Made by a program: the position numbers and the translations under genes. From contig PMZT01000292.1 in the NCBI GenBank assembly GCA_003170085.1, positions 1 to 40,738 on the forward strand: DNA of 40,738 nt, in the 5' to 3' direction. The notes under the pieces were generated by a model. That model ran no database searches. It worked only from the letters and a program-made list of their open reading frames with translations, and was not told the DNA's origin. Below are positions 5,098 through 24,299 of the stretch, piece by piece. This DNA comes from Planctomycetia bacterium (GTDB lineage Bacteria; Planctomycetota; Phycisphaerae; FEN-1346). Each line of letters starts with the position of its first letter. The stretch's first letter is position 1.

Positions 5098-8000
5098 ATG
5101 CCACCCCGCCCGACGGCCGGCCTCCTGTTGTGGACACTGGCCCTCACGGTTTCAGCGGCCTGCGCCGAAGCACAGGAACAGCCGCGCAATCCGTTCGCGA
5201 TGGCCCGCAAATTGGAAAGCCAAGGACGCGCAGCGGAGGCGTTCAAGGCTTTTCTGGCTGTCCCCGGCGGCGAATTTGCGGCGGTTAAACTGGCCCGCCA
5301 CAAGGCCAGGGAATTTCTGACCCTACTTGATGGGATGCCCCAGACTCCCGCGCAGCCGCGCACCCTCCTCGTTCGTGGCGACCTCCTGCTGGCCCTCGGA
5401 GACAAGGCCGGTGCTCTCACATGTTACCGCCAGGTCCTCGGAATGATCGCGAAGGATGGAAGCCAGGAGTGGACCCAAGGTTTCATGCCGCGGGATTATT
5501 ACCCCGTGGAACCTCCCGGCGGTTCGGCCGAGGAGTATCGTCCGGGATCGGCGCTGCCTTTCACGCTGGGCTGCGGCAGCCACCGCGACAACTGGCTCAT
5601 CCGCCGGCTTCTGGCCCTGGAGGCCTACGACGATGCCGGCGGCGAATTCGAGCGGATTTGGGCCATCCACCGCGTGAGGGCCGGCAAGGGGCAGTTCGAC
5701 GCCCTCGGCCTGGAATTCGCCATCGACTACGCTTTCTTCCTCAAAAAGCGCAACCCACCCGACAACGCCCTGGCCGTGCTTCAGGAACCACTGCTACACA
5801 TAGACATGGATCGCAACCCGGGCCTTGGGAAATCCGCTGAAGTCTGGATCGGCTTCGGTTCCGGCCCTCTCGGGCTCTCGCGGAAGGAGTTCATCCGCCT
5901 GGCATTCGGGCAATTCAAGGAGTCGGGTAAAGAGGACGCCCTCGTGACGGCTTTGACCCGGCAGATCGAAGGCGGCCGGAATGCCGCGCGGCGGGTGTTG
6001 GCCCGCATCCGCCTGCACCAGGGCAAGGTGGACGAAGCGGTCGCCCTGGAACTGGATTACATTCAATCCGCCGGCTTCGAACCGCTGACCCAGGCCGTTC
6101 GCCGGGGCTCGGTTTACGAGGATCTCCGGAGGCTGCCCGAGGCGGCCGCGGAGTACGAGAAGGCGCTGGCCCTGCCCTATGCGCCGCTCGCGCTTCCTGC
6201 TCCGGACGAGGAAGTAGTTGACGCCGAGAGGCATGCCGCGACCTCCAGAGTGCTCCCCGCGCCCGGCTCGCGCGAGGCACGCATCGCCTTTCAGACCGAG
6301 CTTCTGGGCCGACTGCGCCGCCTTTACGCCGCGATGGGGATGGCCGACAAGATGCTGGACCTGTCGCTCCGGGAACTCGATGTCGATGAGGCGCTCCTCG
6401 GAGATCCGGATCTGTTTGACCAGACGGCGGCATCCTTCAAGGCGGCGGGCCACACCGACCCGTTCCAGGAGTGGGCCCGCCGGCGCCTGGGCCAGGTCGA
6501 GAGCCTCCAGGCCAAAGCGAATCTCTGTTGGGCGCTGAAAGATACGGCCGGGGCGGTCAGGGCCGTGGCCGCGTGGGCCAAGACGCTGGGCGACAACGAC
6601 CGTTACCTGCTCGAGCCCTGGGAGCAGCGGTTCGCCACGCTCGACATCGCCTCGCAGCGGATGTTCCTGGAGGAACTGGCGAAGGCGCGGCCCACGGATG
6701 GGCAGGTGACCATAAGACTGCTGGAGCTGATGGGACCGGCCGATCCCAAGGTCCTGATCCCGATGGTGGAGAGCGTCCTGGAGAGCAGGGCCTTCGAGAT
6801 CAACTGGGAGGCGGTCATGCACGGCGGCCGCCGGCGCGCGTACTCCCCGGGCCCCGCGCACTACGAGAGCAGTTTCGGCTTCGCGTACCGTCTGATGCGG
6901 CTCTACGAGAAGACGGGCCAGACCGACAAGGTCCTGGCGCTGGGGCTCCGCGTGGCACAGGGGAAGAAGCCCTTCTCCTATCCGGATTTCGAGCAATTCT
7001 CAGGGCGGGAATCCAACGGCGTTCCCGATCTGGGCGAGGCCTGCCTGGCGGTGGCGATTGCCCATGCGACGGATGCGAAGTCGCAAGAGGCCCTGGCCGA
7101 GGCCCTCGCCCCGTCGCCGTGGGAAGTGGCGAAGGCCCAGGTGGCCCGCATCCGGGCCGGCGGTCTGCAGCCGGCGGCGGATGCCAAGCCGTTCGGCTGG
7201 TCCGGCACGCCCGAGGGCGTCACCCTCATCGCTTCCAATGAGTGTGTGCTAAGCCTCTGCCGTGACGACAAGCACCTCTACGTGGGGCAGCCGTGGGGCG
7301 TGGCCATCTACGATTTCGACGGTAAGCCCGTGACGCGCGTGCCCCTGCAAACGGCCGCCCTGCACATGGTCGCCGTCAACGGGGCGCTGTGGGTCGGCAC
7401 GCCCATCGGCCTCTACCGGATCGACCCGGCCACGTGGGACGTTTCCTGCCTGTCGTGCGATCAGGACGTACCGGCGGCGGAGCGCCAAGGGGGGACCCGC
7501 ATCATCGGCCTGGCGGCGCAGGGCGATCTCCTGTGGATCGCCACAGGGCGCAACATTCGCACCTACAACACCAAGACCAACGCGATGAAGGCCTATTCGG
7601 CCGAAGACATGGGCCTCAAGGAATACGTCGACGTGGGGACGTTTTTCTTCGACGGCCGATTCGTCTGGATCACGGGTGTCCGCTACGACCCTGAGGCGGA
7701 CCGGTGGCAAGCCCCCGCGGCGCCCGACGAAGGGCATCCCGTTCACGTGATCGGCCTGGTCGGCGACACGCTGTGGGGTGATGTGTGGGTGAATGGCGCC
7801 CTCGGCGCGCGCCCGTGCATCATCGACCGCCGGACGCTGAAAGTCACGCCGGTCCTGATTGAAGAACGCAAGCCCGAATCGGTACAAGATATAAACGGGC
7901 CGTTCTTTTATGTCGGCCAGTACAATAATCGGCCCGTCTTTCGGGCCTCGCAGAGCCCGCTGCTGGTGTATGACGCCCCGTCCGGGAAGCTGAAGCCCAC

Positions 8001-10539
8001 CAAGGATTGGGAAGAGGCGAGCGCCCTTCTCAAGAACCTCCAGACCGACATACCGGACGGACTGCGGTGGGGCATGGTCGTCTCGCTGCCGGGCGGCGTG
8101 CTGGAGGCCGGCGACGATTCGACACACTCGCACACGGTGGCCGGCCAGCCGTTCGGAGCGCGCCGGTGGTCGCTCTTGAAACTGCCGGATGGGACTCGCG
8201 CGTTCGGCGGCGCGCACTCGCGGTCTCCGCGATACCAGTATCCATCGGAAGATTCGCCGTTCGCGGGAATGGTCTACGAAACGCCGGACGGGTCAGGCGG
8301 GCTGCACTTCCTGTCGCCCCAGGGCGAGAGCCGCTGCGTCTCCAGCCGGCTCCGGACCGATGCCATCCTCGGCGACACGGTCTTTGCCGCCGTCCCCGAC
8401 GAAGCCGGCAAGCGCATCTGGCTATGCACGAGCTTCGGGGTGAGCCTCCTGGACGAGCAGTGCCGCGTGGTCGCGAACTTCACGCACCGCGACGGGTTGC
8501 TCGGTAACCGCGTCTCGGCGGCGGTTGCCATGGGGGGGCGGATGTTCTTTGCCGGCCGGTGGGATGACGAGCGCGGCGGCCTGATGGTCTTCGATCCGGC
8601 CACGTCGGTCTTCACGACCCTCTTCGATCGCGACGGAATGGCCACCAACAGCCTGGAGTCGCTGGCGGCCAAGGGCGATAGCATCGAGCTGACTTACGGC
8701 GTGCAGTACCTCCGCTACGGCCCTGGCGGCGGCCACTACCGGCTCTACGCTCCCACGACCTACACGCCGTCCACCGGGAACTTTTCCCCACCCGGCCAAC
8801 CGCGAATCTTCGACCCTGAGGCAGGACTCCCACCGACCAAAAAACCTATCGGTGAGATGCCGTACCTTGGCGGCTACGTCATCGACAGGAAGGTGATCGG
8901 GAACAGAACGTTCCTTTGCGGCACGCGCGGGCTGGTGATCCTCGACGGCCCGACGGCGCCGGAGATGAAGATCGGCCGGATAGACCCCATCCTGACCCTC
9001 AGCCCTGCCGCCGCCCAGCGGGAGGAGGCCAAGCGGTTCCGCATTCCCGAGAATATCTCACCCGCCCAGTTGAAGGAACTGCTCGCGAATCCGAACCCGT
9101 ACATCGGGGCCAACGCCTTGGCGGCATGCTACACCCCCATGCGGAGTGAGGAGTCCAAGGACTACACCTCCCTCATCGCCGGCTGCGTCGGCCATCCGGT
9201 GCTCTGCGTGCGGTCCACGGCGGTCTGCCTGCTCGCGGAAACCAAGGATCCCGCGGCCATCAAGCCATTGAAGGTTGCCTTGTCCGACAGCGAGCCATTA
9301 ATCCGAGCCATGGCGGCGTTGGCACTGGCCAAGCGCGGCGAAGAGCCGGACCTGGGCTGCTTTGAGGAGATTTTTCACCGGGGAAACGCCGGTTTCGGCA
9401 ATCCGCCGTTCGGCGCCGATTCTTCCCTGGGTGTCGCCGAAGATTACCAGGCGGTCTACGAGGCGCTCGCTCCACGCGCCACGCCGCAGGTCTTCCGGCT
9501 GTTGCTGGAGTATCCGCCCGACCTCAGAAGTTATGACAATAAGACAACCGTCTTTCCGCCATTGGGTGAATCGCTCCGGCGTCATCCCGAGGCGGCGGGG
9601 ATTCTGCTTGGCGCGGCATCCGATGACGTGATGAAGGCGGACTTTGTCCGCGACGTCTTCCGTTTCGCCGGCAAACCCATGTTGCCCATCCTGCACCAGG
9701 CGCTGTCCTCCGACGACCGCGTGGTCCGCTTCAATGCCGCGCGCGGTTGCGGGGCCATCGGCGATCCGTCGTCCATTCCCTTCCTCCTCAAGGCCCTGGA
9801 CATGGAAAGTGGGCTGGCCCGCGCGGGTATCGTCCGGGCGCTGGGGGAACTGAAGGCCAAGGAGGCCCTGCCGGTCCTGGCCCAACTCTATGTCGATGCC
9901 CGCAATGACGAGTCGCGCCGCGCCGGGGCCGGTTATCGAATATCGCAGGCGGCCACTGTCATCCGCAACCAGTACACTGCCCTCAGCAGCCTGGACGCCG
10001 TGGCGGGCGATTGGGACGAACTCAAGGCTTCCCTGAAACCGCGGCCCTCGAATCCGGCGGAGAAGGAACCGCTCCTGAAACCCCAGGACATCCTCGATGC
10101 GGTGGGCGAGATCGGGCCGGCGGCCTCACAGGATTTCTATCGCACCCTGGCGGGCGATAGGAGTGCGGAGGTGCGCGGCGAGGCCGCGAGGAACCTGGCG
10201 GCCGGTAGTCCGCGGGACCTCGACAAGAACCTCCCCCTCCTCAAATGCCTCTTGACGGATGCCGATACTTCCGCCAGCATCCCGGCGGCCGTCAGTCTGC
10301 TGATACTCGACCAGGAGGTGGCGCAGCAACCGATCCTCGCCTGGCTCGAATCGGCGGACCCCTGGCCGAAGAACCGGCTGATCCGTGAATTGGGCCGGGT
10401 CGCCAACCGAGGGCAGTTGACCTTCGCCCACAAAGCCATCGCCGCCTATGCGGAGGATCCGACTTGCGATAAGTATCTCCGCAAGACAGCGCGGAGCCTC
10501 CTGGATTCCAACCCGGCGACGCCCAAGAAAACGCCGTGA
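5098..10539 (+). CDS. Giant secreted protein: TPR, beta-propeller and HEAT repeats
   Basis: 1813 residues. A signal peptide (about 1-26, AxA-type cleavage near AEA-QE) sends it across the inner membrane. Residues about 30-500 are helical with TPR-like repeats (for example LLVRGDLLLALGDKAGALTC). About 710-1300 is beta-rich with repeated propeller-blade motifs (LYVGQPWGVAIYDFDGK, LWIATGRNIRTYN, RIWLCTSFGVSLLDE, TFLCGTRGLVILDG), like the sensor propellers of hybrid two-component proteins but with no kinase attached. About 1320-1800 holds HEAT/PBS-lyase-like repeats (VLCVRSTAVCLLAETKDPAA, VVRFNAARGCGAIGDPSSIP). All three parts are binding scaffolds; no catalytic motif was seen. Start supported by AAAGGA. 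It appears monocistronic. Role unknown. Confidence 0.85.
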   Translation: MPPRPTAGLLLWTLALTVSAACAEAQEQPRNPFAMARKLESQGRAAEAFKAFLAVPGGEFAAVKLARHKAREFLTLLDGMPQTPAQPRTLLVRGDLLLALGDKAGALTCYRQVLGMIAKDGSQEWTQGFMPRDYYPVEPPGGSAEEYRPGSALPFTLGCGSHRDNWLIRRLLALEAYDDAGGEFERIWAIHRVRAGKGQFDALGLEFAIDYAFFLKKRNPPDNALAVLQEPLLHIDMDRNPGLGKSAEVWIGFGSGPLGLSRKEFIRLAFGQFKESGKEDALVTALTRQIEGGRNAARRVLARIRLHQGKVDEAVALELDYIQSAGFEPLTQAVRRGSVYEDLRRLPEAAAEYEKALALPYAPLALPAPDEEVVDAERHAATSRVLPAPGSREARIAFQTELLGRLRRLYAAMGMADKMLDLSLRELDVDEALLGDPDLFDQTAASFKAAGHTDPFQEWARRRLGQVESLQAKANLCWALKDTAGAVRAVAAWAKTLGDNDRYLLEPWEQRFATLDIASQRMFLEELAKARPTDGQVTIRLLELMGPADPKVLIPMVESVLESRAFEINWEAVMHGGRRRAYSPGPAHYESSFGFAYRLMRLYEKTGQTDKVLALGLRVAQGKKPFSYPDFEQFSGRESNGVPDLGEACLAVAIAHATDAKSQEALAEALAPSPWEVAKAQVARIRAGGLQPAADAKPFGWSGTPEGVTLIASNECVLSLCRDDKHLYVGQPWGVAIYDFDGKPVTRVPLQTAALHMVAVNGALWVGTPIGLYRIDPATWDVSCLSCDQDVPAAERQGGTRIIGLAAQGDLLWIATGRNIRTYNTKTNAMKAYSAEDMGLKEYVDVGTFFFDGRFVWITGVRYDPEADRWQAPAAPDEGHPVHVIGLVGDTLWGDVWVNGALGARPCIIDRRTLKVTPVLIEERKPESVQDINGPFFYVGQYNNRPVFRASQSPLLVYDAPSGKLKPTKDWEEASALLKNLQTDIPDGLRWGMVVSLPGGVLEAGDDSTHSHTVAGQPFGARRWSLLKLPDGTRAFGGAHSRSPRYQYPSEDSPFAGMVYETPDGSGGLHFLSPQGESRCVSSRLRTDAILGDTVFAAVPDEAGKRIWLCTSFGVSLLDEQCRVVANFTHRDGLLGNRVSAAVAMGGRMFFAGRWDDERGGLMVFDPATSVFTTLFDRDGMATNSLESLAAKGDSIELTYGVQYLRYGPGGGHYRLYAPTTYTPSTGNFSPPGQPRIFDPEAGLPPTKKPIGEMPYLGGYVIDRKVIGNRTFLCGTRGLVILDGPTAPEMKIGRIDPILTLSPAAAQREEAKRFRIPENISPAQLKELLANPNPYIGANALAACYTPMRSEESKDYTSLIAGCVGHPVLCVRSTAVCLLAETKDPAAIKPLKVALSDSEPLIRAMAALALAKRGEEPDLGCFEEIFHRGNAGFGNPPFGADSSLGVAEDYQAVYEALAPRATPQVFRLLLEYPPDLRSYDNKTTVFPPLGESLRRHPEAAGILLGAASDDVMKADFVRDVFRFAGKPMLPILHQALSSDDRVVRFNAARGCGAIGDPSSIPFLLKALDMESGLARAGIVRALGELKAKEALPVLAQLYVDARNDESRRAGAGYRISQAATVIRNQYTALSSLDAVAGDWDELKASLKPRPSNPAEKEPLLKPQDILDAVGEIGPAASQDFYRTLAGDRSAEVRGEAARNLAAGSPRDLDKNLPLLKCLLTDADTSASIPAAVSLLILDQEVAQQPILAWLESADPWPKNRLIRELGRVANRGQLTFAHKAIAAYAEDPTCDKYLRKTARSLLDSNPATPKKTP

Positions 10540-11199: not shown

Positions 11200-12780
11200 A
11201 TGCCGGTCCCGGAGATTCCCGAGCGACTCAACGCGGCGACGGTGCTTGTCGATGCCCATATTGCCGCGGGCCGAGGCGCCAAGCCTGCCATCCTGTGCGA
11301 AGAGAGAGTTGTCACGTATGGCGCGCTTTGCGAAGGCGTCAACCGGCTGGGCAACGTTCTGAAGGAACTGGGCGTGCGGATGGAGGAGCGTGTCGCCATC
11401 CTCATGCCTGACAGTCCGGAGTTCGCGTTCGCCTTCTTCGGGGCCATGAAGACGGGCGCGGTGGCCATCCCGATGAACACGCTCCTGGTGCCGCGCGATT
11501 ACGAGTATCTTCTGAACGACAGCCGCGCACCGGTCCTGGTGGTGCACGCGTCGCTCCTGGACCGCATCGCGGGCATTCGCGACGGGCTGCGGTACCTGAA
11601 GCACGTGTTGGTCTCTGGCGAGGCGGCGGCAGGGCATCCGGACCTGGAAAGCGCCATGCACCGGGCTTCGCCCGCGTTGGCGGCCGCCGACACGAGCAAG
11701 GATGACGCCGCCTTCTGGCTCTACAGTTCGGGGACCACGGGCTTCCCCAAGGGCACGATCCATCTTCACCACGACATGATCGTGTCGGCGGACCTGTACG
11801 CCAGGCAGACGATCGGCCTCGAGGAATCGGACGTCAGTTTCTCGGTGGCCAAGTTGTTCTTCGCCTACGGCCTGGGGAACGGGCTGTTCTTTCCGCTCCA
11901 CGTCGGGGGGACGACGGTGCTTCTTCCCGGCCGGCCCACGCCCGAAAAGGTGTTCGAGACGCTGGACACGTACCGGCCGACCGTCTTCTACAGCGTCCCG
12001 ACAAGCCTGGCCCAACTGCTGCACACGGCCGAGAAGGAGGGCCGGACCGCCTTGGGGCGCGTCAGGATGTGCGTGTCGGCCGGCGAACCCCTGCCGAAAC
12101 CCATCTTCGAAAAATGGCGCGACCGCTTCGGCGTGGAAATCCTGGACGGCATCGGCTCAACCGAAATCCTACATATCTTCATTTCGAATCGCCCCGGCCG
12201 CGCCAAGGCGGGAAGCACCGGCCAGATCGTCCCCGGCTACGAGGCCAAGATCGTGGACGAGCACGGGCAGCGAGTCCCCGACGGCGAGGTCGGCAACCTC
12301 CTCATCAAGGGCGACAGCATTGCCGCCGGCTACTGGAACAAGCACGAGCACACCCAGCGGACGTTCCTGGGCGAATGGATCAACACGCACGACAAGTTCC
12401 GGCTGGACGCGGACGGCTACTTCTGGTACGCCGGGCGCAGCGACGACATGATGAAGGTGAGCGGCATGGTCGTCTGGCCGAGCGACGTGGAGGCCGTTTT
12501 GCAGGCGCATCCGGCCGTCCTTGAGAGCGGCGTGGCGGCCGCCACCGACGAGGATGGCCTCGTCAAACCGTACGCCTACGTCGTGCTGAAGGACGGGCGC
12601 CAGGCTTCGCCGGAACTTGCAGAGGCGTTGCAGGAGTTCGTGAAGAAGAACGCCGCCCCGTACAAGTATCCCCGGTGGGTGGAATTCGTCGATGCGCTGC
12701 CCAAGACCGCAACGGGCAAGATCAAGCGATACCTGCTGCGCCAGAGGGCGGCGGCCAGGACCGCGTCACAGCCGCACTAA
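11200..12780 (+). CDS. Benzoate-CoA ligase family acyl-CoA synthetase
   Basis: A 526-residue ANL-superfamily enzyme that should convert a carboxylate to its CoA thioester via an acyl-AMP. Motifs: AMP-binding loop YSSGTTGFPKGT (residues 175-186), IGSTE adenine-binding motif, YWNKHEHT and the hinge region YAGRSDDMMKVSG, and the C-terminal catalytic lysine K507 in TGKIKR. Length and overall pattern (FAYGLGNGLFFPL, SVPTSLAQLL) fit the benzoate-CoA ligase subfamily (which includes anthranilate-, cyclohexene- and hydroxybenzoate-activating enzymes) more than acetyl-CoA synthetase, so an aromatic or cyclic acid substrate is likely but unproven. ATG 11200 has a GGAAGG site; a TTG at 11173 is less likely. 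Its 3' end overlaps the convergent KAS III gene by 15 bp. Confidence 0.9.
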   Translation: MPVPEIPERLNAATVLVDAHIAAGRGAKPAILCEERVVTYGALCEGVNRLGNVLKELGVRMEERVAILMPDSPEFAFAFFGAMKTGAVAIPMNTLLVPRDYEYLLNDSRAPVLVVHASLLDRIAGIRDGLRYLKHVLVSGEAAAGHPDLESAMHRASPALAAADTSKDDAAFWLYSSGTTGFPKGTIHLHHDMIVSADLYARQTIGLEESDVSFSVAKLFFAYGLGNGLFFPLHVGGTTVLLPGRPTPEKVFETLDTYRPTVFYSVPTSLAQLLHTAEKEGRTALGRVRMCVSAGEPLPKPIFEKWRDRFGVEILDGIGSTEILHIFISNRPGRAKAGSTGQIVPGYEAKIVDEHGQRVPDGEVGNLLIKGDSIAAGYWNKHEHTQRTFLGEWINTHDKFRLDADGYFWYAGRSDDMMKVSGMVVWPSDVEAVLQAHPAVLESGVAAATDEDGLVKPYAYVVLKDGRQASPELAEALQEFVKKNAAPYKYPRWVEFVDALPKTATGKIKRYLLRQRAAARTASQPH

Positions 12781-13767
12781 CGCCGAGGCCCACACAAAAC
12801 CCGACCCGAAGGCGACCAGCAGGACAAGGCTTCCGTCGCGCGCCATGCCCGACTTCCGCGCCTGGTCCAGCGCGATGGGAAGGCACGCCGACGCCATGTT
12901 GCCGTACTCCTGAACGTTCACGAAGACCTTCTCCATCGGAGCGGCGACGCGGGCGACAACGGCTTCCAGCATCCGCAGGTTGGCCTGGTGTGGAATCAGC
13001 ACGTCGATGGCGTCCATCGTCAGGCCGTTGACCTTCAGGGACTCCACGACGGCCTCCGACATTCGCGCGACGCCGTTGTCGAACACCGCCCTGCCGTCCA
13101 TCCTGAAGTGCACGCGGCCGGCGTCGATGTCTTCCTTGGTGATGTGCTCGGTGCGGCCCAGCGCGCTGCCAGGCGCCGCGGTGTAAAGGGCCTTGGCGCC
13201 TGCGCCGTCGGCGTGAAGGATGGTCGAGAGGATGCCCTTGCGGCCGTCAGCCGACGGCCCCACGACGACCGCCCCTGCCCCGTCGCCCAGAAGAATGGCG
13301 ATGTTACGCCCGTCGAGAGACCCGTCAATCCTCTTCGAGAGGACCTCGGAACACGCGACCAGCACGTGGCGGTACGTGCCCGCCCTGACGAAGTGGTCGG
13401 CGATAGCCAGCCCGTATATGAGCCCGGCGCACTGCTGGCGGATATCCATGACGGCAATGCCCGGCAACCCCAACTTGGCCTGGAGGAAGAACGCGCACCC
13501 GGGGTCGGCGTGGTCCGGGGTGATGGTATTCATGATGAGAAGGTCGACCTGGTCCATGCGGAGTCCGGCGTCCTGGACTGCCGCGCGGCAGGCCGGCACG
13601 GCCAGGTCCGATGCGCTCACGCCCGGTTCGGCGTACCTGCGGCAGCGCACACCCGTACGTTCAACGATGAACTCGTTGGTCGTCTCCATCCTCTTCATGA
13701 TGTCTAAGTTGGTTACTACCTTCGGGGGCAGGTAATGGCCGGTCCCGAGAATGCGCGACAGGATCAT
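12766..13767 (-). CDS. 3-oxoacyl-ACP synthase III (KAS III/FabH-like)
   Basis: A 333-residue thiolase-fold condensing enzyme. The catalytic triad is complete: C113 (QQCAGLIYGL), H260 (IPHQANLRML) and N290 (EYGNMASACL). R37 in the ERTGVR motif and the GDGAGAVVV loop also fit FabH. FabH proper condenses acetyl-CoA with malonyl-ACP, but many paralogues such as PqsD use aryl-CoA or other starters. Embedded here as the last gene of a CoA-ester operon, with no fatty-acid genes beside it, a specialised pathway role is more likely than housekeeping. Start ATG 13767 follows GAGAGGTGGGG and shares ATGA with the stop of the MBL gene, indicating translational coupling. Confidence 0.92.
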   Translation of the reverse strand: MILSRILGTGHYLPPKVVTNLDIMKRMETTNEFIVERTGVRCRRYAEPGVSASDLAVPACRAAVQDAGLRMDQVDLLIMNTITPDHADPGCAFFLQAKLGLPGIAVMDIRQQCAGLIYGLAIADHFVRAGTYRHVLVACSEVLSKRIDGSLDGRNIAILLGDGAGAVVVGPSADGRKGILSTILHADGAGAKALYTAAPGSALGRTEHITKEDIDAGRVHFRMDGRAVFDNGVARMSEAVVESLKVNGLTMDAIDVLIPHQANLRMLEAVVARVAAPMEKVFVNVQEYGNMASACLPIALDQARKSGMARDGSLVLLVAFGSGFVWASALVRL

Positions 13768-14723
13768 GCCCCACCTCTCTGGACGTTCCCGTGCTCGTCC
13801 GGCTCCAGGCCGGCGTACCGGAAAGACTGCTTTACGAGAAGTCCGCAGTTTTTCTGGAAGAAATCGAGCGGCAGCAACTGCGTCCTCGCATAGACCTCCG
13901 AGCCGAGTTGCCCCGCGATCTCGCGGGCCGAGCGGCCGGCCCCCGCTTCGCTGACGATGCGTTCGTGATACTGCTGAGTTGCGGCCAGTGCCCCGTCGAA
14001 ATAGGCGCGAACGGCCGGGGCGCCCGCGATGGCCGCATTGTGGCTCAGGCACAGGACCCCGGCACCGAGCGCCGCCAGGCGCCGTATCGAATTCATGTAG
14101 GCCTCGTACCCCGTGAAATAGTTCGGCCACCAGAAATCAGGGTCGGGCAGGTAGTACCCCGTGGCATCGGATATCACCAGGACGCCGGCGCCCGGCTCGT
14201 GAAAACTAAGGCTGCACTCGCTGTGCCCCGGCGTTTCAAGGACGCGGAACAGAGCGCCCTCATCGACCGAGACCGTGTCGCCTTCCCTGAGGAGGCGGTC
14301 CACGGCAATCCGGTCCTGGGCCAGAGGCGCGGGGCGGTGCGCCTCGGTGATCCGCCCCGCCCGCGCGAGAGATTCTGTCAGCGTATCGTCCACCTGGCGG
14401 AAGAACGCGATCGCCTTGGCCGCCGCGAGCGTCCTGGCCGCGGCCTCCGAGGCCAGGACCTTGACTCCCGGGAACGCCTCGCGCAGTATCGGCACGGCCA
14501 TCACGTGGTCCGGATGGGCATGCGTGATGACGACCTGCTTGACGAAGCCGCGGCCGATGCCCATCGCGCGCAACTGCTCCAGGACGAGCGGCCCCATGGC
14601 GCCGACGCCGCCCTCGAATATCGTGCCTTCGCGCTCGCCCTTGAAGAGGAACAGAGGATACTCGTTGGTCCCGAGCATCCAGAGTCGCGGCGTGATCGCC
14701 GCCGGGGGGTCCTTGATCAGCAT
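13764..14723 (-). CDS. MBL-fold metallo-hydrolase
   Basis: 319 residues. The metallo-beta-lactamase signature THAHPDH (HxHxDH) is near residue 80, with a further His (ETPGHSECS) and Asp (ISDATGY) in the expected positions and a late SHN metal ligand, so a di-metal hydrolase site is likely. MBL proteins include glyoxalase II and aryl-CoA thioesterases (PqsE, 2-aminobenzoylacetyl-CoA thioesterase). In this operon thioester hydrolysis of a CoA intermediate is the most economical guess. The C-terminal 70 residues are helical, as in several MBL thioesterases. The start has AGGAAGGGAAG upstream. It overlaps the upstream activator gene by 7 bp and the downstream KAS III gene by 4 bp. Confidence 0.85.
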   Translation of the reverse strand: MLIKDPPAAITPRLWMLGTNEYPLFLFKGEREGTIFEGGVGAMGPLVLEQLRAMGIGRGFVKQVVITHAHPDHVMAVPILREAFPGVKVLASEAAARTLAAAKAIAFFRQVDDTLTESLARAGRITEAHRPAPLAQDRIAVDRLLREGDTVSVDEGALFRVLETPGHSECSLSFHEPGAGVLVISDATGYYLPDPDFWWPNYFTGYEAYMNSIRRLAALGAGVLCLSHNAAIAGAPAVRAYFDGALAATQQYHERIVSEAGAGRSAREIAGQLGSEVYARTQLLPLDFFQKNCGLLVKQSFRYAGLEPDEHGNVQRGGA

Positions 14724-15508
14724 AGCTGCTTCCCTTCCTGTGCCCTTTCCCTGGCAGCAAGCGCCGCCCCGAAAGCGCCCACGTGCTGTGGCTCGGGGGG
14801 CACCAGCGCCTGGCGGCCGAAGGCCTCTGCCACCAACGTGACCAGCAGCGGGTTGTGCGCCACGACGCCGCCCGTCATCACCAGGGCGCCGTCCACGGTG
14901 TCCATCTCCAGGATGCGTTTGACGACGGAACGAAACGCGCCCTTGACGATGTCCTCGACCTTCTCGCCTGCCCGGATCCTCGCCAGTATCTCGGTCGCCG
15001 TAAACACGGTGCAGAAACTGCCGAGCGTGACCTCTTTCGTCGAGCGTTCGGCCAGGCCGTTGAGCGCCGACACCGGCAGGTCCAGCCGCAGGGCTATCTC
15101 CTCCAGGAACGAACCCGTCCCGGCCGCGCACTTGCGGTTCATCTTGAACCCCGTGCGGCGGCCGTCGTCGTCGAGGTGGATGACCTTCGAGTCCTGCGCC
15201 CCGATGTCGATGACCGTCATTTTCCCGCGGAAGTGGAACCATGCGCCCTGGCCGTGGCAGGCGATCTCGGTCCTCCTGGCGTCGGCCCACGGCACGTTGT
15301 CGCGTCCGTAGCCCGTTGAGACGGAGGCCGCAAGTTGCCCCCGCTCCAGGCCGGCCGCCGACAGGGCCTCCGCGAGGCACCGCTCGGCGACGTCGGCGTA
15401 GTCCACGCCGGAACGGCGCAGGGACTTGGCCACTATCCGCCCGCTTTCGTCAATGATGACGAGTTTGGCGGCCGAGGCCCCGATGTCAACTCCACAGAAA
15501 TACGGCAT
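14717..15508 (-). CDS. 2-hydroxyacyl-CoA dehydratase activator (BadF/BadG/HgdC-type ATPase)
   Basis: 263 residues, ASKHA-fold ATPase. It has the phosphate-1 motif GVDIGASAAKLVI, phosphate-2 motif VIDIGAQDSKVI, and the two cysteines that bridge a [4Fe-4S] cluster between monomers (C127 in CAAGTGSFLE, C166 in GSFCTVF). Family members (HgdC, BcrA/D, BadF/G) hydrolyse ATP to push a low-potential electron into the dehydratase or benzoyl-CoA reductase. The upstream gene is exactly such a partner. Two starts are possible: ATG 15508, or GTG 15544, which forms a GTGA overlap with the preceding stop and adds 12 residues; spacing favours coupled initiation in either case. Confidence 0.93.
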   Translation of the reverse strand: MPYFCGVDIGASAAKLVIIDESGRIVAKSLRRSGVDYADVAERCLAEALSAAGLERGQLAASVSTGYGRDNVPWADARRTEIACHGQGAWFHFRGKMTVIDIGAQDSKVIHLDDDGRRTGFKMNRKCAAGTGSFLEEIALRLDLPVSALNGLAERSTKEVTLGSFCTVFTATEILARIRAGEKVEDIVKGAFRSVVKRILEMDTVDGALVMTGGVVAHNPLLVTLVAEAFGRQALVPPEPQHVGAFGAALAARERAQEGKQLC

Positions 15509-15540: not shown

Positions 15541-16770
15541 TCACCCCTGCGCCAACTGCTCCACAAACGCCTCGACGTTGGTGCGCGCCTGCTCCTCCGA
15601 ATACAGCCGCAGGTCATTCAGGTCGCCGTTGACCACGAGGTACGGCTTCCCGGTTTTCTGCTGGAGGCGTTGCGGCATCTGGTAGCGGTTGTTTGAGTTG
15701 TTGGGGCAGGTTTTCGCGTCGTGGTACAGCACGCCGTCGACCTTGAATCGCGCCATCATGCGTTCCAGGTACTTCTCCTTGTAATCTTCGCTGCGGCAGA
15801 TGAAGAGGTTCGAGTACGCCCGGGCCATGCTCCTGAACGGGTCGGAGGGGTCGAGGTCCTCGAAGACCCAACTATTGCAGTACGTCGAGGCCACCACACA
15901 GGCCCGCAGGGCCGCGAACTGGGTGGCAAGGTCCCGCAACTTGCCCCAGATGGGCATCCCCTCCCAATAGATGCGGAACCGCTCGCCCTCGACCGCCGGC
16001 ACCTTGCCGGCCACGCGCGACTGGAGTTCGGCCAGCAGCACCTCATAGTAGGCGATGGCGTCCGGGTGGCCGCGCAGGACGACGGCCGGCCCCATCTGGA
16101 TCGTATCGTCGAAGAACGTGATGGGCGCCGGCACGTTGGCCGCCGTGTCGAGCACCGCCTTCCACAGCACGGTGCATCGCCTGGCGAGGTCGAGGGTCTC
16201 CTTGAGGCGAGCGGGGTCCAGTTTCGTGCCGGCGACCTCCTGGAGCGGCTTGACCAGCGCTTCGGTCTGCCGCGCCACGGCCTCGATGATGGAATCGTCC
16301 AGTTCGCCGATAGCGCGCGGCGTATGGATACCGAGGCACGGAACGCCCCACTCGCGTGCGTAGAACTGGAACCAGTCCTTGACGTCGCGGCACTGGTTCG
16401 TGTTGTAGACCAGACAATCGGCCCTGGGAGGGCCGGGCATCTTCATCTTCTGGAAGGGACTCTCGCCTTTCAGGTACGACCCGATGTCGCTCGTCAGGTA
16501 AGAGCAGACATCGGGCGAGAACCCCCGCGCGTTGGCCAGCGGGATGAGGTCCGTGGCCATGCGCGTGGCGCCCAGCATGGCGCCATGGTTCTCCGGGAAG
16601 TACACGTTGAACCCCATCGCGCGGAGCAACTCGGCCGGGCCCACGCTGGTGCACCAGGCCGTTTTCCTTCGCTCCTCGCGCCCCCGCATGAGTTCCATGT
16701 AGTACTTTCCCATGACCTCCTTCATCTTGGCGGTGGCCGCAAGGTCCTTTCGCTCCGTGGGTGACGGCAT
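15541..16770 (-). CDS. 2-hydroxyacyl-CoA dehydratase / benzoyl-CoA reductase-type subunit (HgdB/BcrB family)
   Basis: 409 residues of the HGD-D family (PF06050), which bind a [4Fe-4S] or double-cubane cluster and carry out ATP-dependent radical reactions on acyl-CoA esters. Likely cluster ligands are C40 (TAWCTS), C127 (NTNQCRD) and C355 (AKTCPNN), at the family's three conserved positions; further cysteines are C89, C119, C145, C291, C298 and C325. Usual enzymes pair two homologous subunits; only one is encoded here, so a homodimer, a missing partner elsewhere, or a double-cubane-type protein are the options. ATG 16770 is preceded by GGAAGGAG and shares one base with the previous stop (TAATG). 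The activator follows directly. Confidence 0.9.
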   Translation of the reverse strand: MPSPTERKDLAATAKMKEVMGKYYMELMRGREERRKTAWCTSVGPAELLRAMGFNVYFPENHGAMLGATRMATDLIPLANARGFSPDVCSYLTSDIGSYLKGESPFQKMKMPGPPRADCLVYNTNQCRDVKDWFQFYAREWGVPCLGIHTPRAIGELDDSIIEAVARQTEALVKPLQEVAGTKLDPARLKETLDLARRCTVLWKAVLDTAANVPAPITFFDDTIQMGPAVVLRGHPDAIAYYEVLLAELQSRVAGKVPAVEGERFRIYWEGMPIWGKLRDLATQFAALRACVVASTYCNSWVFEDLDPSDPFRSMARAYSNLFICRSEDYKEKYLERMMARFKVDGVLYHDAKTCPNNSNNRYQMPQRLQQKTGKPYLVVNGDLNDLRLYSEEQARTNVEAFVEQLAQG

Positions 16771-18857
16771 TATCGCACTCCTTCCATTTCTCTCAGGTGC
16801 CGGCAGGGCGAGAACCGCGCCCCGTGTTCCTCCGCCAGCCGGTCAAGGTCCGCCCGGACGTTGCCCAGGCCGAGGTCGCGTGCATATCTTAGCACGCCGC
16901 CGCGAAAATCGGGAAACCCCGTTCCCAGCACCAGGGCAACGTCAAGGTCCGATTCCCGCTGCGCAACGCCCTCTTCCATCACGTAGAATGCCTCGTTGAC
17001 CATCCGCAGGACAAGACGCCGCGTGATCTCATCCTTGCCCACGGGGCGCGGCGCGCGGCCTGCGGCCTGCTGTACTTCCGCGATGACCTGTGCGGTTTCG
17101 GCGCTCGGGTACGGCGTGCGATCACCCTTCTCGTATCTGTACACCCCCGCTCCGCTTTTCTGGCCAAGACACCCGCGCTCCACCAGGCGTACGGCGACTT
17201 GCGACAACAGCCCATGGGCGGGAAAGGCGCGGCTCAGCACACGGTCCGTGAGCACCAGCACGTCCAGCCCCGCCATGTCAACCAGCGTCAGGGGCCCCAT
17301 CGGGAACCCAAACTCGACCATGGCGCCGTCGATGGCCGGCGCATCCGCCCCCTCCTCCAGCAGCCAGAAGGCCTCCTTCAGGTACGGAATGAAGAGGCGA
17401 TTGACCAGGAAACCTTCGCGGTTCCTGACGAGCACCGGCGTCTTGCGGATGGACTTGACGAACCCGAGCGCCGCCGCCACAACGCTGTCTGCCGTCGCGT
17501 CTCTCCTGATGACCTCCACGAGCGGCATGTGGTGCGCGGGGTTGAAAAAGTGCATGCCGACCAGCCGCTCGGGACGCCGCAGCCCAGCGGCCAGCACGTC
17601 CAGCGAGATCGTGGACGTGTTCGTGGCGATAATCGTGCCGTCGCCGCAGGCGGCCTCGATCCGCCCGATGACAGCGCGCTTCACGGCCGTCTCCTCGAAC
17701 ACCGCCTCAACGACAAGCGGGGCGTCGGCCACCTGCTCCCAGTCCGCCGTCGTGGAAAGCAGGCCGAGTATGCCTTCCGCCGCCTCCGGCTTGAGGTCGC
17801 CCTGCTCGACTCGGCCGCGGATGCTGCTTCGTATCCGGTCCGCCCCTTTCCGAAGAGCCGCATCGTCCTGGTCGAGAACCGCCACCCGTATGCCGCAGGT
17901 GATGAAGGCCTGCGCTATGCCCGTGCCCATCGAGCCCATGCCGATCACGGCGGCCCGCGTTATGTCGGCAGCGGGGCCTGCCGGCAGCGCCGGAATCTTA
18001 CCCGCCTGGCGCGCCGCAAAGAAGAGGTATATCTTGTTGCGCGCCGCCGGCGTGCCCATGCACTCGGCGAAGCCTTCCTGCTCCTTGCGCAGGCCTGCCC
18101 GGAAAGACTCCTTCAGGCCGGTCCGGACCGCCTCAAGGATTATCCGGGGCGCGATGATCTCCGGACGCACGCCGGCCAGTCGCTCTGGGGCGCTCCGGAA
18201 GGCGGCTTCGTCGGCGGCCCCGTTCAGCCGGTCGGTGCGGCCGCTCGTCCGGCGCGGCGCGGCAGCGGACTGGAGCAGGGCACGGGCGCTCTCGACAAGG
18301 TCGTCGCCCGCGCAGACCGCATCCATGAGGCCGGTCACGCAGGCGCGGCGGGCATCAACGGCATCGCCCGTCAGGAGCATCCCCAGCGCCTCTTCCGCGC
18401 CGACCAGCCTGGGCAGCCGCTGCGTGCCGCCCCCCCCGGGATTGATACCAAGCGTAACCTCCGGCATGCTGAACCGGGCCGCCTTGTCACAGACGCGGTA
18501 GTGACAGGCCATGGCCAGTTCCAGCGCGCTGCCCATGACGCGCCCCGCCACGGCCGCCGCCACCGGCTTGGCGGAATCCTCCACCGCCTGGAACGCTTCC
18601 TGGAACACGCGCGACGCCCGGACCGCCTCTTCGGCGTTCGACAGGTCCCGGAACAGGGCCAAGTCGGCGCCCGCGCTGAAATGGTCAGGCCGGCCGGTCA
18701 GGATGATCCCCCGGACGCGGGGCTCCGCGCAGGCCCGGCGAACGGCGGCCACCAATTCATCCAGAAGCGCGAAGGTGATCGTATTGACCGGCGGCGCATT
18801 AAGCCGGAGCACGCACACGCCGCCTGATACGGTAGACTCAATCATCCGCCCCGCCAT
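16770..18857 (-). CDS. Bifunctional enoyl-CoA hydratase / 3-hydroxyacyl-CoA dehydrogenase
   Basis: 695 residues with the FadB/FadJ layout. Residues 1-190 are a crotonase domain with the two catalytic glutamates E113 (SALELAMACHYRV) and E133 (MPEVTLGINPGGGGTQRLP); the usual GGG before E113 is GSA. Residues 300-480 are the NAD-binding Rossmann domain (GMGSMG 306-311) with catalytic H436 (HFFNP) and E448. Residues 480-690 form the tandem 3HCDH C-terminal domains. It hydrates an enoyl-CoA and oxidises the 3-hydroxyacyl-CoA with NAD+. In this operon it could act on a dienoyl-CoA made by the dehydratase/reductase, analogous to Dch in benzoyl-CoA degradation, or in ordinary beta-oxidation. The start is 8 bp after the ADH stop. 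Confidence 0.93.
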   Translation of the reverse strand: MAGRMIESTVSGGVCVLRLNAPPVNTITFALLDELVAAVRRACAEPRVRGIILTGRPDHFSAGADLALFRDLSNAEEAVRASRVFQEAFQAVEDSAKPVAAAVAGRVMGSALELAMACHYRVCDKAARFSMPEVTLGINPGGGGTQRLPRLVGAEEALGMLLTGDAVDARRACVTGLMDAVCAGDDLVESARALLQSAAAPRRTSGRTDRLNGAADEAAFRSAPERLAGVRPEIIAPRIILEAVRTGLKESFRAGLRKEQEGFAECMGTPAARNKIYLFFAARQAGKIPALPAGPAADITRAAVIGMGSMGTGIAQAFITCGIRVAVLDQDDAALRKGADRIRSSIRGRVEQGDLKPEAAEGILGLLSTTADWEQVADAPLVVEAVFEETAVKRAVIGRIEAACGDGTIIATNTSTISLDVLAAGLRRPERLVGMHFFNPAHHMPLVEVIRRDATADSVVAAALGFVKSIRKTPVLVRNREGFLVNRLFIPYLKEAFWLLEEGADAPAIDGAMVEFGFPMGPLTLVDMAGLDVLVLTDRVLSRAFPAHGLLSQVAVRLVERGCLGQKSGAGVYRYEKGDRTPYPSAETAQVIAEVQQAAGRAPRPVGKDEITRRLVLRMVNEAFYVMEEGVAQRESDLDVALVLGTGFPDFRGGVLRYARDLGLGNVRADLDRLAEEHGARFSPCRHLREMEGVR

Positions 18858-18864
18858 TTCCCGA

Positions 18865-19824
18865 TCACAACTCCAGTGTGAGTTTCAGTGAGCCCTCGGC
18901 GCACGTGGCGTACATCTCGAAGGCCTCCGGGGCTTTCTCCCAGGGCATGCGCGGCGTGACCATGTCGCCCACGTCCACGCGCCCGTCGACCACCCTGTCA
19001 ACCGCGATCTGGAAGAACTCCGAGCACTCCGGCCCCACCGACGTGATAATAGTGATCTCGTTGCGGAACGTGTCATACCACGGGAACGGCTGGTCGTTGT
19101 AGTCCGGCATGCCGAAGACGAAGAGCCGGCCGGCCCGCCTGGGTAGATGCGCCGCCGTGGCCATGGAGTCGGGCTTGCCGGCGGCATCGACGCAGAAGTC
19201 GACCTTTTCGCCACCGGTCAGTTCCTTCACCCTTTCGACGACGTCCTCTTTCGACGCATCAATGACGTCGCTGGCGCCGAATCGCCTGGACCACTTCAGG
19301 CGCCACGCCAACTTGTCGATCGCGATGACCTGCCGCGCGCCCATCAGGCCGAGCACGTGGGTCCAAATCAGCCCCATAGGGCCCTGGCCGACGACCGCGC
19401 AGCGCTGGTTGATGACGTTGCCCGTTTGCGAAAGGGCACGCAGGACGGTCGAGAGCGGCTGGGCCACGATGAGCGCGGCCACGTCCGGCGCATCCGGCGG
19501 CAGCGCGGCAACGCCCGGGGGCTTGGCCCGGATGAACTCGGCAAAGCCGTAGTACCCTTCGGGTTGGGCCAGGACCAGCGTGCCGGGTTTCCACGCATCG
19601 CATCGAGATTCGACGATAGTGCCGATATTCTCGTGTCCCGCCCATCCCACGGGGTTGGGGAAATCGATCTTGCCCCACACGCCCTCGCCCGTGTACTGGC
19701 CCATGTTGCTTCCGCACAGGGCCACGTAACGGCACTGCACCAGGACCTCCCCGGGCAGCGGCTCGGGCTTCGGAGCGTCAAGGAAGGCGATTTTCCTGGG
19801 TTCCACGATATGGATGGCTCTCAC
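18865..19824 (-). CDS. Zinc-type alcohol dehydrogenase (MDR family)
   Basis: 319 residues. GroES-like N-terminal domain with catalytic zinc ligands C37 (ALCGSN) and H64-E65 (GHE), then an NAD(P)-binding Rossmann fold (VVGQGPMGLIW). The lobe carrying four structural-zinc cysteines is absent. It belongs with medium-chain dehydrogenases such as threonine, sorbitol and 6-hydroxycyclohex-1-ene-1-carbonyl-CoA dehydrogenase. First gene of the minus-strand operon, so it may oxidise a hydroxyl on the pathway's CoA ester, as Had does in benzoyl-CoA degradation; this is inference. Start GTG 19824 is chosen from an upstream AGGAGG; the frame stays open to 19965 without a credible site. A weak TTGTGA/TACCAT promoter may lie near 19970-20000. 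Confidence 0.85.
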   Translation of the reverse strand: MRAIHIVEPRKIAFLDAPKPEPLPGEVLVQCRYVALCGSNMGQYTGEGVWGKIDFPNPVGWAGHENIGTIVESRCDAWKPGTLVLAQPEGYYGFAEFIRAKPPGVAALPPDAPDVAALIVAQPLSTVLRALSQTGNVINQRCAVVGQGPMGLIWTHVLGLMGARQVIAIDKLAWRLKWSRRFGASDVIDASKEDVVERVKELTGGEKVDFCVDAAGKPDSMATAAHLPRRAGRLFVFGMPDYNDQPFPWYDTFRNEITIITSVGPECSEFFQIAVDRVVDGRVDVGDMVTPRMPWEKAPEAFEMYATCAEGSLKLTLEL

Positions 19825-24065: not shown

Positions 24066-24119
24066 GGACCGGAATCTCCTTGGGTACGGCCGCCGCACGT
24101 TGTCCGCGCCACGCTTTCC

Positions 24120-24139
24120 ATTATAGTGTTTCCGGAAAA
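24120..24139 (-). promoter_or_regulatory. Possible -10 and adjacent palindrome for the TPP enzyme gene
   Basis: Minus-strand TATAAT at 24125-24120, and the 10-bp palindrome TTTCCGGAAA at 24130-24139, placed where a repressor or activator could bind. The -35 is poor. Confidence 0.35.
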
Positions 24140-24299
24140 GGGTTGCACTGGCGCGGTCGGCAGCATATCGTAGGAATTTGCCCGAGCTGTACATCCTGCA
24201 ATTGCGAGCCGTGCAACCAAACGCACGTTGGATCATGGTCATGTCTTTCTGTCGCGCCCCAGATCATTTCCCGCCGTGCCAAACCTCTAGGAGCTTGCG

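What the first reader, a model, noticed from the sequence alone, without database searches (positions are those of the whole stretch)
11200..14723. PqsA/PqsD/PqsE-like trio of enzyme classes
Ligase of the benzoate/anthranilate family, KAS III with intact C113-H260-N290 and an MBL-fold protein are the same three folds that make the 2-aminobenzoylacetyl intermediate of alkylquinolones in Pseudomonas. This raises the possibility that an aryl-CoA is extended and then released here, i.e. a signal or natural product. Fold similarity alone does not show it.
Basis: inference. Interest (0 to 1): 0.5.

Follow-up and report, generated by a model that had tools for sequence, protein, structure and literature searches.

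The report
Likely aryl-acid chain-extension gene cluster
A seven-gene cluster pairs relatives of the Pseudomonas quinolone-signal enzymes PqsD and PqsE with a benzoate-type activating enzyme and a radical dehydratase, and probably lengthens an aromatic acid by two carbons to make a still unknown product.

Summary
The KAS III is not housekeeping FabH: its best sequence matches are PqsD, and ten PqsD pocket positions are kept in at least 35 of 39 relatives but in at most 2 of 35 FabH-type rows. The genome has its own FabH beside PlsX and FabD genes. The MBL protein is a full-length PqsE relative; seven metal ligands are kept in 30 of 30 rows. The ligase is of the benzoate-CoA ligase family.

The trio is one end of a larger unit. 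The same strand carries an activase, a 2-hydroxyacyl-CoA-dehydratase alpha-type protein without a beta partner, a FadB-like protein and a zinc dehydrogenase. 38 named loci (Planctomycetota, Verrucomicrobiota, Chitinispirillaceae) share this KAS III. Where tested, ligase (15 of 15) and dehydratase (7 of 7) lie elsewhere in the genome if not beside it. Three related genomes show no thiolase above cut-off, and FadB is their only 3-hydroxyacyl-CoA dehydrogenase, which favours synthesis.

Best reading: aryl acid to aryl-CoA, malonyl extension to aroylacetyl-CoA, then reduction, dehydration and radical 2-hydroxyacyl chemistry; probably not alkylquinolones. Substrate, direction and product are inferred.

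The parts
11200..12780 (+). benzoate-CoA ligase family enzyme (BCL), PqsA-like role
   Evidence: TIGR02262 627 bits; best solved structures 2v7b benzoate-CoA ligase 479.5 and 4wv3 anthranilate-CoA ligase 469.7 bits; profile 4wv3 570.2, 2v7b 564.2
12766..13767 (-). PqsD-type ketoacyl synthase III (KAS III)
   Evidence: PqsD best match: 264.8 vs 237.8 bits for the best FabH, profile 342.7 vs 304.7; pocket residues; model
13764..14723 (-). PqsE-like metallo-beta-lactamase-fold thioesterase candidate (MBL)
   Evidence: PqsE 67.6 vs next family 36.4 bits, profile 106.3 vs 55.7; fold TMq 0.80-0.84 vs 0.66 for the next; metal ligands 7 of 7 in 30 of 30
14717..15508 (-). ATP-dependent activase of the HgdC/BcrAD family (ACT); ORF could start at 15544
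   Evidence: PF01869 170 bits, TIGR00241 211 bits over its cut-off; C127 and C166 in 20 of 20
15541..16770 (-). 2-hydroxyacyl-CoA dehydratase alpha-type protein (HGD-D), no beta subunit nearby
   Evidence: PF06050 226 bits; profile HadB 215.8, MbdO 142.8, BzdO 111.4, HadC 20.9; no second copy in the loci
16770..18857 (-). FadB-like fusion: enoyl-CoA hydratase + 3-hydroxyacyl-CoA dehydrogenase
   Evidence: PF00378, PF02737, PF00725; the only 3HCDH gene found in its genome
18865..19824 (-). zinc-type MDR dehydrogenase (ADH), GTG start at 19824 likely (ORF to 19965)
   Evidence: PF00107, PF08240; 77% orthologue in L046 starting at residue 41 of the ORF; start computed; found in 8 of 19 assessable loci

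Best explanation
The cluster encodes a CoA-thioester pathway that lengthens an aromatic carboxylic acid by two carbons. BCL makes aryl-CoA. The PqsD-type KAS III loads the aryl group on C113 and condenses it with malonyl-CoA (or malonyl-ACP) to aroylacetyl-CoA. The PqsE-type MBL protein hydrolyses a thioester of the pathway, most likely that aroylacetyl-CoA or the end product. The FadB-like protein reduces and dehydrates aroylacetyl-CoA to an aryl-acryloyl (cinnamoyl-type) CoA, and HGD-D with its activase acts on this by radical chemistry, most likely interconverting it with the 2-hydroxy (aryl-lactyl) CoA. Shown: which families the proteins belong to, intact catalytic and metal-binding residues, pocket residues of PqsD type, conserved order and co-occurrence. 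Inferred: aromatic substrate, direction, order of steps and product.
For: KAS III closest to PqsD by sequence with a control showing that the genome's other KAS III prefers FabH (294.9 bits; PqsD 201.7). Ten positions of PqsD named in PMC3734052 (F32, H85, D87, R145, N154, L159, T195, F218, A289, S317) are kept in 35-39 of 39 relatives and 0-2 of 35 FabH-type rows. MBL is closest to PqsE by sequence, profile and whole-length fold; another MBL protein (L158) prefers a different structure (128.2 vs 32.6 bits). MBL beside KAS III on the same strand in 34 of 36 assessable loci. BCL elsewhere in 15 of 15 and HGD-D in 7 of 7 genomes tested where not adjacent. No thiolase above cut-off in 3 of 3 genomes, FadB the only 3HCDH gene in each, no ring-hydrolase of the BamA/Oah family.
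Against: No substrate or product is known. Structure alone does not decide: VIA Z 45.3 for PqsD and 44.3 for FabH are near-tied. The tree that adds other KAS III puts PqsD beside this group with only 78/68 support, PqsD is a long branch, and holding PqsD with the FabH rows is not rejected (p-AU 0.063). Eleven of 38 pocket or loop positions compared differ from PqsD. In two Chitinispirillaceae loci (L102, L103) KAS III has no PqsE-like MBL nearby and sits behind an ADP-forming acyl-CoA synthetase. FadB enzymes work in either direction. HGD-D lacks the beta subunit of known dehydratases.
Confidence: 0.5

Rival explanations
1. The unit runs the other way: side-chain degradation of aryl-lactates or cinnamates. 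HGD-D makes the enoyl-CoA from 2-hydroxyacyl-CoA, FadB hydrates and oxidises it, KAS III (in place of a thiolase) or the MBL protein splits aroylacetyl-CoA, leaving aryl-CoA or aryl acid.
For: All steps from aryl-lactyl-CoA to aroylacetyl-CoA are encoded. Known 2-hydroxyacyl-CoA dehydratases serve amino acid fermentation (recalled). A sodium:solute symporter precedes BCL in L158 and an MFS transporter lies beside BCL in L071, as for uptake.
Against: No thiolase above cut-off in three genomes (one sub-threshold match in G004, genomes 88-92% complete), and KAS III keeps a Cys-His-Asn decarboxylating-condensation triad. No known KAS III acts as a catabolic thiolase (recalled).
Confidence: 0.2
2. 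A strict PqsADE-like branch: the MBL protein releases aroylacetate, which is (or decarboxylates to) a small released molecule; FadB and HGD-D form a separate module that only shares the neighbourhood.
For: MBL-KAS III is the tightest pair (34 of 36), and the FadB-HGD-D-activase module is physically separate in five of the genomes looked at (L157, L159, L160, L162, L163).
Against: Where looked for, HGD-D is still in the same genome (7 of 7) and the seven genes form one tight array in the window.
Confidence: 0.13
3. Ring reduction: HGD-D with activase is a benzoyl-CoA-reductase-like enzyme acting on the aryl-CoA made by BCL.
For: HGD-D also matches BcrB (140 bits) and the reductase subunits MbdO and BzdO; BCL makes the right substrate.
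Against: HadB dehydratase scores higher in both searches; no BamA/Oah family member; the partner reductase subunit is absent from the loci.
Confidence: 0.07
4. The acid is not aromatic (alicyclic or branched), and PqsD-like residues reflect ancestry only.
For: Substrate was not tested; eleven of 38 compared positions differ from PqsD.
Against: Ligase motifs match benzoate-CoA ligases and the pocket matches PqsD.
Confidence: 0.08
5. Ordinary FabH plus unrelated neighbours.
For: KAS III is above the curated cut-off of the general fabH model (317.8 vs 292.1).
Against: Second, housekeeping-type KAS III in the genome, PqsD best match, pocket, conserved cluster.
Confidence: 0.02

Closest known systems
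PqsA-PqsD-PqsE part of the alkylquinolone pathway (Pseudomonas aeruginosa)
   Same: Aryl-CoA ligase, PqsD-type KAS III, PqsE-type MBL; PqsD pocket residues and PqsE metal ligands. PqsD and PqsE reactions taken from passages of PMC4807248.
   Different: No PqsBC-like pair found; benzoate-type ligase motifs; PqsE E182 replaced by Y/F, and R243/R246 are not kept while R247 is; coupled to FadB, HGD-D, activase and ADH.
2-hydroxyacyl-CoA dehydratases (HadBC + HadI, FldBC, HgdAB + HgdC)
   Same: HadB-like HGD-D with invariant cysteines; activase with both expected cysteines.
   Different: Only an alpha-type gene; no beta subunit in 27 loci examined; below the HadB equivalog cut-off (209 vs 750 bits).
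Benzoate-CoA ligases (2v7b, BadA) and anthranilate-CoA ligase AuaEII (4wv3)
   Same: TIGR02262 family; 65-75% of residues not measured, but top scores of 564-570 bits.
   Different: Substrate unknown; in a cluster without ring-degradation genes of the Oah family in the genome.
Bacterial FabH
   Same: Fold, catalytic triad, general family score.
   Different: Pocket and substrate loop; second copy in genome.

Membership tests
PqsD-type KAS III | Cys-His-Asn triad | tested here: met
   C113, H260, N290 in 39 of 39
PqsD-type KAS III | closer to PqsD than to FabH in sequence | tested here: met
   264.8 vs 237.8 bits; profile 342.7 vs 304.7; control FabH of the same genome 201.7 vs 294.9
PqsD-type KAS III | PqsD pocket and substrate-loop residues | tested here: met
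   27 of 38 positions have the PqsD residue as commonest in this family, 19 of 38 in the FabH-type rows; ten positions discriminate
PqsD-type KAS III | one clade with PqsD | tested here: inconclusive
   78/68 support; PqsD with FabH rows not rejected, p-AU 0.063; long branch
PqsD-type KAS III | condenses aryl-CoA with malonyl-CoA | not testable with these tools
   needs enzyme assay
PqsE-type thioesterase | HxHxDH motif and the other metal ligands | tested here: met
   H69, H71, D73, H74, H159, D178, H221 of PqsE in 30 of 30 (the last three ligands recalled)
PqsE-type thioesterase | full-length PqsE fold, beyond the MBL core | tested here: met
   17 PqsE chains first, TMq 0.80-0.84, next 0.66; 306-317 alignment columns apart from shorter ones of 303
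PqsE-type thioesterase | catalytic-pocket residue E182 | tested here: not met
   Y in 21, F in 9 of 30; role of E182 from passages of PMC8754118
Alkylquinolone biosynthesis | PqsBC-like condensing pair | tested here: not met
   two PF08541 genes in the genome, this one and the FabH; genome 88.9% complete
Alkylquinolone biosynthesis | anthranilate as substrate | tested here: inconclusive
   profile slightly prefers AuaEII (570.2 vs 564.2) but two motifs are benzoate type
Benzoate-CoA ligase family TIGR02262 | score over curated cut-off | tested here: met
   627.1 vs 375.25 bits
2-hydroxyacyl-CoA dehydratase | alpha-type subunit with iron-sulfur cysteines | tested here: met
   HadB 215.8 bits; C89, C127, C355 in 24 of 24 (ligand role recalled and from the alignment to 3o3m)
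2-hydroxyacyl-CoA dehydratase | beta subunit encoded with it | tested here: not met
   one HGD-D protein per locus in 27 of 27 loci; seven other HGD-D genes of the genome all match the double-cubane family best
2-hydroxyacyl-CoA dehydratase | ATP-dependent activase | tested here: met
   TIGR00241 211.3 vs 125.4; C127 and C166 in 20 of 20
Class I benzoyl-CoA reductase pathway | ring hydrolase Oah/BamA in the genome | tested here: not met
   no TIGR03200 match at E 1e-20 in three genomes
Housekeeping FabH | sole KAS III, groups with FabH | tested here: not met

The most novel reading that the evidence does not exclude
Bacteria of three phyla carry a synthetic route from aromatic acids to C3-extended aryl acids (aryl-lactate or arylpyruvate level) that runs amino-acid fermentation chemistry backwards: PqsD-type malonyl extension replaces the thiolase, FadB runs reductively, and a one-gene alpha-type 2-hydroxyacyl-CoA dehydratase with activase works without a beta subunit. 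Linked genes for arylpyruvate or 2-hydroxyacid chemistry (IorAB in L102; GlcDEF-like in L089, L094, L098) fit this, though each was seen in few loci.
Probability: 0.2. Interest if true: 0.8.

Novelty: new variant of a known kind. Interest (0 to 1): 0.6.

Why it matters
PqsE orthologues are described as restricted to Pseudomonas and Burkholderia (abstract of PMC12077149). Here a distant PqsE relative sits beside a PqsD-type enzyme in uncultivated Planctomycetota and Verrucomicrobiota, in a setting that also holds radical dehydratase chemistry. If the reading is right, PqsD/PqsE chemistry is older and broader than quinolone signalling, and the window names seven testable enzymes for an undescribed aromatic pathway. 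The one-gene dehydratase would also test whether the alpha subunit of that family can work alone.

Tried and rejected
Housekeeping FabH: rejected. Phenylalanine supply because pheA is missing: rejected, prephenate dehydratase is present in 3 of 3 genomes. Beta subunit in trans: the seven other HGD-D proteins of G000 all match the double-cubane reductase family best in NCBIfam; G005 has one other HGD-D gene, not examined. S42 and E60 of HGD-D align with HadB S37 and E55 (recalled as substrate contacts) but BzdO also has a serine there in the alignment, so they do not separate dehydratase from reductase. The phenylpyruvate-decarboxylase-like gene at 22386-24242 as part of the unit: no match in the other loci. 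The MBL protein next to BCL in L158 as the missing PqsE relative: rejected. Structure search as a judge between PqsD and FabH: Foldseek ranks five PqsD chains first, but VIA Z is near-tied, and the model is weak at 196-208. Literature: no paper holds '2-hydroxyacyl-CoA dehydratase' with 'PqsD', nor PqsE, PqsD and 'planctomycet' together; searches listed nothing in title or abstract that describes this cluster. One search for HadBC contact residues gave only unrelated papers. Subscription papers are not held, so absence from print is not shown.

Rows dropped: 5 of 34 MBL hits (three with a stop in the aligned stretch, one with a stop and short, one short), 3 of 26 HGD-D, 4 of 22 FadB, 3 of 15 BCL and 1 of 28 activase hits left out of the near-full sets; the activase alignment A7 then used 19 of the 27 near-full rows plus the window. 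Ligase adjacency was missing in 23 of 38 loci and 15 of these genomes were searched; HGD-D was missing in 12 of 38 and 7 searched. In G435 the ligase match is in two pieces on two contigs; in G438 the HGD-D match holds one stop. One search lists the best 80 of 137 relatives found through six peptide patterns, so 38 is a count within that search; L068 and L072 are the same contigs as L045 and L046.
Full report
What is there. The window is contig C296 of a 4.47-Mb, 88.9% complete assembly. The ligase (11200-12780, +) faces a tight minus-strand array: ADH (18865-19824), FadB-like (16770-18857), HGD-D (15541-16770), activase (14717-15508 or 15544), MBL (13764-14723), KAS III (12766-13767). Neighbouring genes overlap or lie within 7 nt, apart from 32 nt before the activase if its ATG start is used.

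KAS III is PqsD-type. In PDB sequences its best match is PqsD, 264.8 bits against 237.8 for the best FabH; with a 39-row profile 342.7 against 304.7. As control, the genome's other KAS III (L011) prefers FabH, 294.9 bits, with PqsD 25th in the list at 201.7; its neighbours are PlsX and FabD. PMC3734052 (passages read) lists PqsD residues that contact anthraniloyl-CoA, line a secondary channel, or form the substrate loop. Of 38 such positions including the triad, this family has the PqsD residue as its commonest at 27 and the 35 FabH-type rows at 19; ten positions separate the two (F32, H85, D87, R145, N154, L159, T195, F218, A289, S317; 35-39 of 39 against 0-2 of 35). Three positions go the other way: R223, I263 and S89 are commonest in the FabH-type rows but not here. 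The FabH-type rows are the best KAS III of 27 relatives' loci, three more of this family and five; they were not each proven to be FabH. Trees: with FabH rows only, PqsD falls with this family (100/100), but on a long branch; with nine further KAS III the join has 78/68 and the alternative of PqsD with the FabH rows is not rejected, p-AU 0.063. The model (pLDDT 86) gives PqsD the first five Foldseek places, but VIA Z is 45.3 against 44.3, near-tied. So residues and scores carry the claim, not fold or tree.

MBL is PqsE-like. Single-sequence 67.6 bits against 36.4 for the next family, profile 106.3 against 55.7. Foldseek with a pLDDT 93 model puts 17 PqsE chains first (E 1e-21 to 1e-18, TMq 0.80-0.84), then 2zo4 at 1.7e-15 and 0.66. 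Seven metal ligands are kept in 30 of 30 rows, but E182, a catalytic-pocket residue (PMC8754118, passages), is Y or F in 30 of 30; of the RhlR-interface arginines only R247 is kept. A different MBL gene from L158 prefers 2zo4, 128.2 against at most 32.6 for PqsE, which shows that not every MBL here resembles PqsE. [quoted passage not shown] the present proteins are relatives at 24-26% identity, not claimed orthologues.

Ligase. Family score 627 bits. Single-sequence search favours benzoate-CoA ligase 2v7b (479.5) over AuaEII (469.7); the profile slightly favours AuaEII (570.2 against 564.2). The stretch KLFFAYGLGNGL is identical in 2v7b and in 11 of 13 orthologues, while AuaEII has KLFFTFGTGGNL; DGIGSTEILHIF is like the benzoate ligases. 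That these stretches line the aryl pocket is recalled. A benzoate-type acid is more likely than anthranilate, but not shown.

The larger unit. One search gave 38 loci at 67-87% identity, then a drop to 36% and less. Counting loci that have enough flank or show the gene: MBL 34 of 36, activase 28 of 33, HGD-D 26 of 30, FadB 22 of 25, ligase 15 of 28, ADH 8 of 19. Where the ligase was not beside KAS III, 15 of 23 such genomes were searched and 15 of 15 hold it elsewhere at 64-71% (next match 32%); for HGD-D, 7 of 12 were searched and 7 of 7 hold it at 68-78%. Five of these show FadB-HGD-D-activase as a separate block, two of them with the ligase in front and one with ADH. In Chitinispirillaceae (L102, L103) KAS III follows an ADP-forming acyl-CoA synthetase; IorAB lies upstream in L102, with an IorB fragment at the edge of L103; no PqsE-like MBL was found in the stretches held. 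Three verrucomicrobial loci (L089, L094, L098) carry GlcD/E/F-like genes. Within the window's own family the KAS III orthologue was found in 3 of 6 genomes, and HGD-D at E 1e-60 in 18 of 392 genomes of the phylum, so the unit is patchy.

HGD-D. It is nearest HadB, the alpha subunit of 2-hydroxyisocaproyl-CoA dehydratase (215.8 bits), ahead of benzoyl-CoA-reductase subunits MbdO and BzdO (142.8, 111.4) and far from HadC (20.9). No second HGD-D protein was found in 27 of 27 loci. Seven cysteines are invariant in 24 of 24 and the activase keeps C127 and C166 in 20 of 20, the ligand pair recalled for HgdC. An alpha-type gene alone is unusual; whether it works as a homodimer is open.

Direction. 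Thiolase (PF02803) is not found above cut-off in three related genomes; G004 has one sub-threshold match (22.1 bits). The 3HCDH domain occurs in one gene per genome: the cluster's FadB in G000 and G005, and a gene on a separate contig (C383) in G004 that I take to be the same one. One acyl-CoA dehydrogenase gene is present in each. No Oah/BamA family member. Genomes are 88-92% complete, so absence is not proof. This favours a synthetic role in which KAS III feeds FadB; the reverse, with KAS III standing in for a thiolase, is the main rival. Transporters beside the ligase in L071 and L158 show that the acid may come from outside, which fits both.

Verdict. Pqs-like core: well supported in sequence. 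Whole pathway as stated: about even odds. Product and biological purpose: unknown.

Noticed in passing
L012:4505-19998 (G000 contig C190): Corrinoid methyl-transfer region (B12-binding protein, MtaA/CmuA-like, AcsV-like activator, URO-D family) together with three HGD-D proteins of the double-cubane type and an activase.
   Followed up: partly
L013:7037-11728 (G000 contig C101): Three HGD-D family genes close together, all matching the double-cubane reductase family best, with a methyltransferase gene among them.
   Followed up: partly
window 22386-24242 (-): Indolepyruvate/phenylpyruvate decarboxylase-like TPP enzyme (TIGR03394, 400 bits, below its cut-off of 554.5), not found near the other clusters.
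   Followed up: partly
L102:3-4289 and L103:7887-9968: In Chitinispirillaceae an ADP-forming acyl-CoA synthetase directly precedes KAS III; L102 also has IorAB-like genes upstream.
   Followed up: partly
L098:11006-14677, L094:2789-5866, L089:2-2974: GlcD/GlcE/GlcF-like genes next to the unit in three verrucomicrobial loci.
   Followed up: partly
L075:11145-11555: A 4HBT-type thioesterase gene downstream of KAS III; similar ORFs lie in L099, L100 and L105.
   Followed up: no
window 5098-10539, 24300-29804, 36238-40275: Very long ORFs of 1813, 1834 and 1345 aa of unassigned function; not compared with protein families here.
   Followed up: no
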